A stretch of 35,123 nt of DNA, taken from positions 1-35,123 of the forward strand of contig CALUUY010000010.1 in assembly GCA_944324095.1 (NCBI GenBank), read 5' to 3'. The notes beneath the pieces are model-generated. The model was given only the letters and a program-made list of their open reading frames with translations. It did no database searches and had not been told where the DNA came from. Within the stretch, counting starts at the first letter, position 1, and every line of letters begins with the position of its first letter. The translations under genes and the position numbers were made by a program. Below, piece after piece: positions 26,270 to 29,175 of the stretch. This stretch comes from an uncultured Elusimicrobiales bacterium (GTDB taxonomy: Bacteria > Elusimicrobiota > Elusimicrobia > Elusimicrobiales > Elusimicrobiaceae).

Positions 26270-26575
26270 TTAATAAGGCATTACCAGGGGGGATGTGAAC
26301 ATCTGCTGCATTAGTACAAAAAACTGCCAGCAGGCGTAACACAAATATACGGTAAACAGCAAAATAACCACACAATAAATAGCTTTGGCGGCCGTGCTAA
26401 GTGTTTTGGACAAAAACACCGGTATTAAAGCAAACGGCCCCAATACCAACATTAATAAAATAATGCCGGAGTGGGAATACCAAAACCCGGTGCCGGGTTT
26501 TAACGGCTTGCCGCAGCTGCGGCAGAAGTTGTCCAGCTCGTCAATTTCTTGGCGGCATTTGGGGCAGAAGGGCAT
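26270..26575 (-). CDS. Zinc-ribbon membrane protein
   Basis: The 101-residue protein begins with a zinc ribbon, FCPKCRQEIDELDNFCRSCGK (ligands C4, C7, C18, C21). Two hydrophobic segments follow (about 33-55 and 62-88). Ribbon-plus-helices proteins are common, but their function is generally unknown. The start codon overlaps the stop of the RelA/SpoT gene (TAATG), so production is tied to it. No terminator is obvious after it. Confidence 0.8.
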   Translation of the reverse strand: MPFCPKCRQEIDELDNFCRSCGKPLKPGTGFWYSHSGIILLMLVLGPFALIPVFLSKTLSTAAKAIYCVVILLFTVYLCYACWQFFVLMQQMFTSPLVMPY

Positions 26576-28017
26576 TAAATGTCCACCCCCTTGCTGCGCA
26601 GGTAGCGTTTGATGTGGCTGCGGGCTCCGGCCGTGCGGGCAAACTCCAGCCAGTCGCGTTTAGGCTCGCTGTTTTTGCGGGTGATAATTTCGCACACGTC
26701 TCCGGTTTTAAATACATAATCCATACGCACCATCCGTTTGTTTACCATAGCGCCTACATAGTGGTCGCCAATATCGGTGTGAATAGAATAGGCAAAATCA
26801 ATGGGGGTGGCGCCTTCCGGCAGGGATTTTACGTCCGCCCGCGGTGTAAACACAAAAATTTGCTGCAGGTTTACGTCCGTTTTAAATCCTTCCAAAAATT
26901 CACGCGGGGCGGTTAAATCCCGCTGCCATTCCACCCATTGGCGTATCCAGTTTATTTTTTCGTCAAAGTTTTTGTCTTGCTTTACATTGCCCATTTTGTA
27001 GCGCCAGTGTGCGGCGATACCGTATTCGCAGGTGCGGTGCATGTCTTCGGTGCGGATTTGCAGTTCCACAATGTCTCCCGTAGGCCCCAGCACCGTGGTG
27101 TGTATGCTTTGATACATATTGGCTTTTGGGGTGGCAATGTAATCCGTAAACGTACCGGCAATGGGTTTAAAGCGGGAATGCACAATACCCAGCGCTTTGT
27201 AACAGTCCTGCACGGTTTTGGTAATAATACGCACGCCCAGGGAATCTTGTATTTCCTGAAAAGAACACTGGTGTTTTTGCATTTTGCGGTAAATGGAATA
27301 ATAGTTTTTAGCGCGGGAAAGCAGGCGGTATTCCAAGTGCTCTTCTTGCAAGGCCGGTTCCAGCTGTTTTTTGAATGCGTCTAACGCGGCTTGCCGGTCT
27401 GCTGTGCGGGCTTCTACCTGTTGTTTTAAATTGGTGTATTCCTGCGGGTGCAGGTATTTAAAAGAAAGGTCTTCTAAATCCGTCTTGATGGTAAACATAC
27501 CCAAGCGCTGGGCCAAAGGCGCATAAAGGGTTAAGGTTTCATAGGCTTTAAATTTTTGTTTTTCCGGGGGCATTACGTCCATTGTACGCATATTGTGGGT
27601 ACGGTCGGCCAGTTTAATGAGAATAACGCGTACGTCTTCGGCCACGGCTATAAGCATTTTGCGCCAGTTTTCCACGGTTTCTTCGTCAGTGGAGGAAAAC
27701 TTTAAATCGCTTATTTTGGTAACCCCTTGCACCATATGCGCCACTTGTTTATTAAACTCTCTTTTTAAGTCTTCCAATGTAACATCGGTGTCTTCCACCG
27801 TGTCGTGCAGAAGGCCGGCGCAGATGGTGTCTTCATCCATTTTAAAATCCAGCAGAATATCAGCCACGTGGTAACAGTGGGTAAAGTACGGTTCGCCGCT
27901 TTCGCGTTTTTGATGTTTGTGCGCTTTTTGGGCAAAATGATAGGCCTTGGCGATTAATTCGCCAGAGCTGTTGGGATTGTATTCTTTAAATTTATCTAAA
28001 AGCGCTTGTAATTCCAT
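26575..28017 (-). CDS. RelA/SpoT-family (p)ppGpp synthetase/hydrolase, C-terminally short
   Basis: 480 residues. The HD hydrolase domain has H47, H71-D72 and N142, spaced exactly as H53, H77-D78, N148 in streptococcal Rel. The synthetase domain has RAKNYYSIYRKM, D258, E318 (ELQIRT) and KANMYQSIHT. The TGS domain is at about 385-448 (QQIFVFTPRADVKSLPEGATPIDFAY). Two features are unusual. The segment that reads RxKD in bifunctional enzymes and ExDD in RelA is T289-F-T-D here. The protein also stops shortly after TGS, so the zinc-finger and ACT/RRM domains of full-length Rel (about 720-750 residues) are absent. It starts 3 bases after lpxB and its stop overlaps the zinc-ribbon gene. By family it controls ppGpp. 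Relative synthesis and hydrolysis activity cannot be judged. Confidence 0.93.
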   Translation of the reverse strand: MELQALLDKFKEYNPNSSGELIAKAYHFAQKAHKHQKRESGEPYFTHCYHVADILLDFKMDEDTICAGLLHDTVEDTDVTLEDLKREFNKQVAHMVQGVTKISDLKFSSTDEETVENWRKMLIAVAEDVRVILIKLADRTHNMRTMDVMPPEKQKFKAYETLTLYAPLAQRLGMFTIKTDLEDLSFKYLHPQEYTNLKQQVEARTADRQAALDAFKKQLEPALQEEHLEYRLLSRAKNYYSIYRKMQKHQCSFQEIQDSLGVRIITKTVQDCYKALGIVHSRFKPIAGTFTDYIATPKANMYQSIHTTVLGPTGDIVELQIRTEDMHRTCEYGIAAHWRYKMGNVKQDKNFDEKINWIRQWVEWQRDLTAPREFLEGFKTDVNLQQIFVFTPRADVKSLPEGATPIDFAYSIHTDIGDHYVGAMVNKRMVRMDYVFKTGDVCEIITRKNSEPKRDWLEFARTAGARSHIKRYLRSKGVDI

Positions 28018-28020
28018 AGT

Positions 28021-29175
28021 CTAGTTCTTTAAATCTTGCAAAATGTCCGCCGCGGCGCGTTGGGCCACTCCTTTTTCGCCCAAAGAGGCCCGTAGTTCCA
28101 GCAATTTGTTGTGCATTTGCTGTAAGCTGTTCGGGTTTTGAAACATAGCAGATGTTTCGGCCGCCAATGCTTCAGCCGTGGCATCTTGCTGAATAAATTC
28201 TTTTACAAGAGGTTTTTCTTTAGCCAGCAGATTTACCAGCGAAATGTAATTTACCTTAATTACCATTTTAGCTATTTTGTAAGTGGGCCAGGAAAGTTTA
28301 TACGCCACCAGCATCGGTACGCCTAAAAGCGCGCTTTCCAGCGTGGCCGTTCCGGAACAGCAAAGCAAATAGTCCATCTGGGCGCGCTGGGCGTAGTGTT
28401 CGTCCCGTACGATGTGAAATTGCGGGTGGGGTTTTTCGCCCAGTAAATCTAAAAACAGCTTATCCGGTAAAGACGGTAAAGCAAACAAATAGGCCTGTGT
28501 ATTAGGAAAAGTTTTTAAGGTTTTTTTGAAGGCTTGATACAACACCGGGGTCAAGCGAGTAATTTCACCCATACGGCTGCCTGGCAGCAAGCCCAGTTTC
28601 CAGGGGTGGTTTTTAGGGTCTTTAATCGTGGTGTAGTCCTTGGGGTGGGCTGGGGGCATAATGTCTAAAAGCGGGTTTCCCAAAAAAACGGCGTTGCCAC
28701 CAAATTTTTGATGAAAAGCCGGTTCAAACGGATAAATAACAAACATTTTACGGGTTAAAGCCGCTAAACGTTTGGCGCGGTATTGGCGGCTGGCCCATAC
28801 CTGCGGCGTTACGTAATAATAAGCCGGAATGTTGCGGTGGGCCGCTAAACCTAGCACCTGGTGGTTGAAGCCGTAAAAATCCACCACAATTAACGCGATG
28901 GGGTTTTGGGTTTCCATATATTGTCGGATGATAGAGAGCAGTTTAATCCACATCGGCATTTTTTTAAGCGGTTCCACAAACCCGCTGGCCCCTTTGGAAG
29001 CCAGGTCAAACAAAAATACATCGGCCTCTTTTTGCATTAACTTGCCGCCGATAGCCGTTACTTTTACTTCCGGGTCTTGGGTTTTTAAAGCCTTGATTAA
29101 GTTGGAAGCGTGCAAATCGCCGGATACATCACCGGCTACAATAAGTATATTTTTTACAATAGGGGTAATAGTCAT
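28021..29175 (-). CDS. lpxB: Lipid-A-disaccharide synthase
   Basis: 384 residues, normal length. Recognised from the N-terminal ILIVAGDVSGDLHASNLIKAL, IALIVVDFYGFNHQVL, PAYYYVTPQVWASR, LLPGSRMGEITR, and the C-terminal CCSGTATLESALLGVPMLVAY nucleotide-sugar site. It joins UDP-2,3-diacylglucosamine and lipid X to form the tetraacyl disaccharide of lipid A, on the inner face of the membrane. Indicates a Gram-negative envelope. It lies 2 bases after the Gfo/Idh oxidoreductase gene and 3 bases before the RelA/SpoT gene. Confidence 0.94.
   Translation of the reverse strand: MTITPIVKNILIVAGDVSGDLHASNLIKALKTQDPEVKVTAIGGKLMQKEADVFLFDLASKGASGFVEPLKKMPMWIKLLSIIRQYMETQNPIALIVVDFYGFNHQVLGLAAHRNIPAYYYVTPQVWASRQYRAKRLAALTRKMFVIYPFEPAFHQKFGGNAVFLGNPLLDIMPPAHPKDYTTIKDPKNHPWKLGLLPGSRMGEITRLTPVLYQAFKKTLKTFPNTQAYLFALPSLPDKLFLDLLGEKPHPQFHIVRDEHYAQRAQMDYLLCCSGTATLESALLGVPMLVAYKLSWPTYKIAKMVIKVNYISLVNLLAKEKPLVKEFIQQDATAEALAAETSAMFQNPNSLQQMHNKLLELRASLGEKGVAQRAAADILQDLKN

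What the first reader, a model, noticed from the sequence alone, without database searches (positions are those of the whole stretch)
26575..28017. RelA/SpoT protein with T-x-T-D instead of RxKD or ExDD
Seen: the synthetase segment before DYIA reads T289-F290-T291-D292. Known: bifunctional Rel/SpoT have RxKD and monofunctional RelA has ExDD at this place, and the motif affects metal use and the choice of GDP or GTP. Both charged side chains are replaced by threonine, while HD hydrolase residues (H47, H71, D72, N142) and synthetase residues D258 and E318 are kept. Inference: altered nucleotide or metal preference, or a changed balance between the two activities.
Basis: partly seen in the sequence, partly recalled or inferred. 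Interest (0 to 1): 0.6.

Follow-up and report, generated by a model that had tools for sequence, protein, structure and literature searches.

The report
Phylum-wide shortened Rel with TxTD motif
The only alarmone (ppGpp) enzyme encoded in this gut bacterium is a naturally shortened Rel that has swapped a near-universal charged substrate-site motif for neutral threonines or serines, and almost every relative in the phylum Elusimicrobiota that keeps the gene has the same two changes, which makes the phylum a natural test of how the stringent-response enzyme is tuned.

Summary
The gene lies on the minus strand (26575-28017, 480 aa) and reads T289-F290-T291-D292 where Rel/SpoT have RxKD and RelA has ExDD. 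It is not a one-genome oddity. Among 162 distinct Elusimicrobiota Rel proteins from the whole phylum, 160 read [S/T]xTD; none of 136 outgroup RSHs from four phyla does, and a DNA pattern for it hits 0 of 776 further genomes. T291 is the most group-specific site in the protein. It corresponds to RelSeq Lys297, the only charged substrate-site residue lost; all other catalytic residues are kept. The helical, zinc-finger and RRM/ACT domains are absent from the protein and, in 26 of 27 genomes tested, from the genome. Both traits map to the single stem branch of the phylum. Usually this is the sole synthetase gene, so the synthetase is very probably active. Best reading: a minimal bifunctional HD-SYNTH-TGS Rel whose substrate loop was retuned when C-terminal and ribosomal control was lost. 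The motif's biochemical effect is inferred, not shown. E. minutum Rel was already known to lack ACT; I found no report of the motif or of phylum-wide conservation. New variant of a known kind.

The parts
26575..28017 (-). Rel (RelA/SpoT homologue) gene, 480 aa, HD-SYNTH-TGS, only RSH found in the genome
27496..27945 (-). HD (ppGpp hydrolase) domain, residues 25-174; catalytic R38, H47, H71, D72, E75, D76, D138, N142 conserved
26989..27318 (-). SYNTH (ppGpp synthetase) domain, residues 234-343; R235, K237, D258, R263, K298, N300, Y302, H306, E318, R322 conserved
27142..27153 (-). T289-F290-T291-D292, in place of RxKD/ExDD; T291 = RelSeq Lys297
26680..26859 (-). TGS domain, residues 387-446, with H413 (equivalent of B. 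subtilis H420, which recognises the tRNA 3' CCA end) invariant in the phylum
26575..26679 (-). C-terminal tail, residues 447-480, and stop: the protein ends where the helical domain would begin; HEL, ZFD and RRM/ACT absent

Best explanation
This is the bifunctional Rel of an Elusimicrobiota gut bacterium (the closest relative with a published name, at 84% protein identity, is Candidatus Avelusimicrobium). It belongs to a phylum-wide, vertically inherited subtype that differs from canonical Rel in two linked ways: the chain ends after TGS, and RxKD is replaced by [S/T]xTD. Shown: both traits, their phylum-wide conservation, one clade, selection on the motif, conservation of the other catalytic residues, and usually no second synthetase. 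Inferred mechanism: the enzyme makes and degrades (p)ppGpp as usual. With no helical, ZFD and RRM domains it cannot be held on the ribosome or controlled by the C-terminal domain in the canonical way. Its balance is set by direct HD/SYNTH antagonism, with TGS (plus the linker before it) clamping the HD site. Neutralising the basic loop at the substrate site retunes the synthetase (lower or differently gated basal activity, and possibly a different GTP/GDP or Mg2+ optimum), so that the enzyme is tolerable without C-terminal control.
For: Motif: TxTD 83, SxTD 77, NxTD 1, AxND 1 of 162 phylum sequences; outgroups mainly RxKD/RxRD/KxKD/HxKD, with no [S/T]xTD in 136. Pattern 159/162 versus 0/136 and 0/388 + 0/388 genomes. 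T291 ranks first and T289 seventh among group-specific sites. T291 is coded by all four Thr codons; position 289 uses all six Ser and all four Thr codons, with at least 16 changes on the tree. Of 13 RelSeq substrate-site residues listed in PMC8801413, 11 are near-invariant here; K297 became T and A335 became C/A/S. Truncation: 157 of 162 have <10 and 5 have 10-19 residues beyond the match end, versus 140-290 in outgroups. No separate CTD in 26 of 27 genomes, with 6 of 6 outgroup genomes positive. The rows form one clade, SH-aLRT 99, with motif columns left out. 153 of 162 PF04607-positive genomes have a single synthetase domain. Fold: nearest solved structure is B. subtilis Rel 6yxa. Literature: the motif affects regulation by the CTD (PMC8801413); TGS and Core scaffold the HD site (PMC9974481); Francisella RelA also combines a short C-terminus with an odd motif, EXSD (PMC4708007).
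Against: No activity data. Both traits sit on the same stem branch, so their coupling rests on one event in this phylum plus Francisella. H413 of TGS is invariant, so tRNA sensing, and hence some ribosome dependence, may remain. Other stem changes (S/A234, Q257, T266, R231) may matter as much as TxTD. The structure model has a disordered 339-385 linker (pLDDT below 50) and gives no view of substrate contacts.
Confidence: 0.6

Rival explanations
1. One reading: the motif change is mainly an adaptation of nucleotide (GDP/GTP) or metal preference, independent of domain loss.
For: RXKD and EXDD are reported to set GTP/GDP preference and Mg2+ response (PMC3153485, PMC8801413); Francisella RelA with EXSD uses GTP with no measurable GDP turnover (PMC4708007). 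T291 replaces RelSeq Lys297, a listed substrate-site residue.
Against: The change coincides with loss of the whole regulatory C-terminus on the same branch. [quoted passage not shown] Untested for this protein.
Confidence: 0.25
2. The segment is a protein-protein interface: the change alters dimerisation or binding of a partner, not catalysis.
For: In B. subtilis Rel, F296 and K297 (equivalent to F290 and T291) lie at the DarB contact, and that interface is buried in the dimer of Rel lacking ZFD and RRM (PMC9848473).
Against: Lys297 is also a listed substrate-site residue (PMC8801413), and F290 is invariant here. No partner is known in this phylum.
Confidence: 0.1
3. Relaxed constraint: after the C-terminus was lost the motif was free to drift, and T/S has no special role.
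For: RXKD is conserved only in long RSHs (PMC3153485), so loss of C-terminal domains could remove the need for it.
Against: T291 is kept in 161/162 sequences across the whole phylum with all four Thr codons in use; position 289 stays S/T in 160/162 sequences although it changes at least 16 times. A drifting site would vary more widely.
Confidence: 0.05
4. The synthetase is dead and the protein is hydrolase-only, like A. baumannii SpoT.
For: A positively charged substrate-site residue is lost.
Against: SpoTAb lost D272, R249, R277 and Y329 equivalents (PMC9974481); here D258, R235, R263, Y302, E318 and H306 are kept in essentially every sequence. In 153 of 162 genomes there is no other PF04607 synthetase to make substrate.
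Confidence: 0.04

Closest known systems
Canonical bifunctional Rel (RelSeq, B. subtilis Rel, M. tuberculosis Rel)
   Same: HD, SYNTH and TGS domains, 44% identity to 6yxa over the structural alignment, TIGR00691 over cut-off, catalytic residues kept, TGS histidine kept
   Different: RxKD replaced by TxTD; helical, ZFD and RRM/ACT domains missing
Elusimicrobium minutum Rel (PMC3153485; reported to lack ACT)
   Same: Same phylum; the probable E. minutum genome here (G078, 1,643,562-base contig; identification from memory) carries SFTD and the same short form (L111)
   Different: The 2011 survey noted only the missing ACT domain in one species and did not mention the motif; here the loss also covers helical and CC/ZFD domains and the whole phylum
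Francisella tularensis RelA (EXSD, no ACT; PMC4708007)
   Same: Odd hydroxyl residue at the same motif position (S versus T) together with a shortened C-terminus
   Different: Monofunctional RelA; keeps Glu at the first position; only about 100 residues shorter; still ribosome-activated, weakly
RshC of Bacillus and Salinispora RshA (PMC3153485)
   Same: RshC keeps TGS but is cut in the helical domain and lacks CC and ACT; Salinispora RshA lacks CC and ACT
   Different: They are second copies beside a full Rel; here the short form is usually the sole RSH synthetase of the genome. Their motifs were not checked

Membership tests
Bifunctional Rel (long RSH) | HD hydrolase residues intact | tested here: met
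Bifunctional Rel (long RSH) | SYNTH catalytic and substrate residues intact | tested here: met
   12 of 13 listed positions keep a canonical or tolerated residue; only the K297 position departs (T)
Bifunctional Rel (long RSH) | RxKD motif | tested here: not met
   [S/T]xTD in 160/162
Bifunctional Rel (long RSH) | TGS domain | tested here: met
   residues 387-446, H413 invariant
Bifunctional Rel (long RSH) | Helical, ZFD/CC and RRM/ACT domains | tested here: not met
   absent from protein and genome; rare exceptions are already known (PMC3153485)
Bifunctional Rel (long RSH) | Synthesis and hydrolysis of (p)ppGpp | not testable with these tools
   needs enzyme assay
Monofunctional RelA | ExDD motif and degenerate HD site | tested here: not met
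   TxTD; HD residues intact
Hydrolase-only SpoT (A. baumannii type) | Degenerate SYNTH site | tested here: not met
   D258, R235, R263, Y302 kept
Small alarmone synthetase/hydrolase | Single domain | tested here: not met
   HD + SYNTH + TGS

The most novel reading that the evidence does not exclude
A whole phylum runs its stringent response with a minimal, largely ribosome-independent Rel in which loss of the C-terminal regulatory half and neutralisation of the RxKD loop are mechanistically linked: the TxTD loop restrains the synthetase in place of C-terminal control.
Probability: 0.35. Interest if true: 0.7.

Novelty: new variant of a known kind. Interest (0 to 1): 0.55.

Why it matters
RxKD/ExDD is used as a classifier of RSH enzymes and is thought to link nucleotide choice to control by the C-terminal half. 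Elusimicrobiota offer a natural experiment in which the C-terminal half and the motif charges were both lost and the result has been kept across the phylum. Full-length Rel or RelA stripped of its RRM is toxic in B. subtilis and E. coli (PMC7058999), so how these bacteria live with a still shorter Rel as their usual only synthetase is a concrete, testable question. It also warns against annotating RSH nucleotide preference from RxKD/ExDD alone.

Tried and rejected
Split gene or frameshift: the C-terminal half of a Clostridia Rel finds nothing in this genome or in 25 other Elusimicrobiota genomes tested, while 6/6 outgroups are positive; the single exception (G322) is the tail of a second, very divergent long RSH. 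Sequencing or assembly artefact: excluded by near-identical genes in dozens of independent assemblies. Loss of the tRNA-sensing TGS histidine: I first suspected it from the local sequence, but the alignment shows H413 equals B. subtilis H420 and is invariant. A general loss of the long-RSH 'cross-talk' residues of PMC3153485 Table 3: most are kept, with P293, M131, E169 and G317 (RelSeq numbers) the main shifts, so the C-terminal loss did not erase them. Mobile/viral origin: no match of the motif pattern in IMG/VR. lpxB-rel operon as a phylum-wide functional link: adjacency is mostly confined to the own family.

Full report
What is there. The finding lies on the minus strand: ORF 28017 to 26575, ATG start, 480 aa. 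Pfam places HD at 25-174, RelA_SpoT at 234-343 and TGS at 387-446, with nothing after TGS. TIGR00691 is matched well over its cut-off but only up to model position 451 of 687. The genome (1.58 Mb, 88.75% complete) has one RelA_SpoT domain and one HD_4 domain, both in this gene. The nearest named records are uncultured Elusimicrobium/Elusimicrobiales metagenome-assembled genomes and Candidatus Avelusimicrobium at 84% protein identity, so the organism is an elusimicrobiote of animal-gut type.

The motif is real and not chance. Residues 289-292 read TFTD in the place of RFKD in B. subtilis and M. tuberculosis Rel (alignments, where only mismatched letters differ). A degenerate DNA pattern for [S/T]xTD..PK.N.Y occurs once in the window and never in 100 shuffles.

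It is a phylum character. Rel genes were collected from the genus (several dozen assemblies) and from genera, families, orders and classes across the phylum. After removing duplicates and short fragments, 162 Elusimicrobiota proteins were aligned with 136 outgroup RSHs from Bacillota, Pseudomonadota, Cyanobacteria and Bacteroidota (phyla assigned from the record titles of the seed loci). Elusimicrobiota: TxTD 83, SxTD 77, NxTD 1, AxND 1. Outgroups: RxKD 93, RxRD 16, KxKD 12, HxKD 7 and eight others; none [S/T]xTD. The DNA pattern finds 159/162 Elusimicrobiota loci and 0/136 outgroup loci, and 0 of 388 and 0 of 388 genomes in two further phylum-wide scans. No viral contig carries it.

It is under selection. 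In a ranking of all 480 positions by group-specific conservation, T291 comes first and T289 seventh. T291 is encoded by all four Thr codons, and position 289 by all six Ser and all four Thr codons. On a tree built without the motif columns, position 289 changes at least 16 times inside the phylum but is other than S/T in only two sequences, while position 291 changes once. This is what a requirement for a small hydroxyl side chain looks like, not drift.

Everything else in the active sites is kept. HD residues R38, H47, H71, D72, E75, D76, D138 and N142 and SYNTH residues R235, K237, K245, D258, K298, N300, Y302, H306, E318 and R322 are invariant or nearly so. Of the 13 RelSeq substrate-site residues listed in PMC8801413, the only charged one lost is Lys297, now T291; A335 is C, A or S. 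The 286-300 loop goes from a mean net charge of +1.9 in outgroups to -0.1. Other stem changes lie in or near the same domain: G to A/S at 234, Y to Q at 257, V to T at 266, E/D to R at 231. R231 might partly offset the lost charges; this is conjecture.

Every full Elusimicrobiota sequence ends shortly after TGS: 157 of 162 have fewer than 10 residues beyond the match end and five have 10-19, against 140-290 in outgroups (tails). A search with the C-terminal half of a Clostridia Rel finds nothing in 26 of 27 Elusimicrobiota genomes, including this one, while all six outgroup genomes are positive. The exception, G322, has a second and very divergent long RSH. The missing part is the helical, ZFD/CC and RRM/ACT domains. 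TGS is kept, with H413, the equivalent of B. subtilis H420, invariant.

One origin. In a maximum-likelihood tree the 78 Elusimicrobiota rows form one side of one branch, SH-aLRT 99. The branch nearest the root (family code f29) has both traits, so both arose on the stem of the phylum and their order cannot be read. Among genomes at least 90% complete plus this one, 162 have a RelA_SpoT domain and 153 of these have exactly one (my count from the table), so this Rel is normally the sole synthetase.

Structure. AlphaFold2 on a 24-sequence alignment gives mean pLDDT 80 with a disordered 339-385 linker. The best solved match is B. subtilis Rel 6yxa, then SpoT 7qpr and ribosome-bound RelA 5iqr. The linker corresponds to the 'Core', which is disordered in synthetase-active Rel/RelA (PMC9974481).

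How it probably works. Shown: domains, residues, domain loss, conservation, single origin. From literature: RXKD/EXDD has been tied to GTP/GDP preference, Mg2+ response and C-terminal regulation (PMC3153485, PMC8801413); removing the RRM makes Rel or RelA toxic through ribosome-driven overproduction, and removing ZFD as well makes B. subtilis Rel non-toxic (PMC7058999); TGS plus Core clamp the HD site in SpoT, and deleting TGS-HEL brings a 42-fold fall in hydrolase activity (PMC9974481). Inferred: Elusimicrobiota Rel is bifunctional but no longer held by the ribosome through ZFD/RRM; TGS is kept as HD scaffold and perhaps tRNA sensor; the neutral TxTD loop sets a synthetase level or substrate preference suited to the absence of C-terminal control. 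Francisella RelA, which pairs EXSD with a shortened C-terminus and behaves more like bifunctional enzymes in GTP specificity and sigmoidal kinetics (PMC4708007), is an independent case of the same pairing. Two lineages do not make a rule.

Known versus new. The 2011 RSH survey listed one Elusimicrobium Rel as lacking ACT (PMC3153485) and a 2020 paper repeated it (PMC7058999). I found no paper in the open-access library that describes the motif change or the phylum-wide form. Subscription papers could not be checked. I therefore call it a new variant of a known kind.

Limits. No kinetics; no outgroup beyond four phyla; the true sister group of Elusimicrobiota was not sampled, so the traits could extend beyond the phylum. 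Organism names for G-handles are inferred.

Noticed in passing
26270-26575 (-): A 101-aa zinc-ribbon membrane protein starts on the last base of the rel stop codon; it is conserved directly downstream of rel in the own family (f1) only and has no assigned function. Whether it is linked to the loss of the Rel zinc-finger domain is unknown.
   Followed up: partly
28021-29175 (-): lpxB (lipid-A-disaccharide synthase) lies 3 bases upstream of rel on the same strand; adjacency is conserved in the own genus and part of the family.
   Followed up: partly
Elusimicrobiota genomes G253 (C28) and G264 (C34), genus code g74: Rel remnants with several in-frame stops, and no Rel in many other members of this genus, which by size and placement may be termite-gut endosymbionts; the stringent-response gene seems to be decaying there.
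   Followed up: partly
Elusimicrobiota families f3, f6, f7, f8, f16, f18, f19: No Rel of this type was found in these families' listed genomes, several 95-100% complete, which suggests lineages without a bifunctional Rel; one f6 genome (G163) has only a distant RelA_SpoT domain.
   Followed up: no
L197 / L228 (genome G322): A second, very divergent long RSH with GxIN at the motif and an RRM-like tail in an otherwise ordinary Elusimicrobiota genome; transfer or contamination.
   Followed up: no
L170 (G176) and L161 (G100): The only two departures from [S/T]xTD among the 162 phylum sequences: AFND and NFTD.
   Followed up: no
L128 and L129 (G149, two short Rel genes on contigs C34 and C7): A few genomes (G147, G149, G007, G175, G291, G292, G295) show two RelA_SpoT matches, which may be duplicates, mixed bins or small synthetases.
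   Followed up: no
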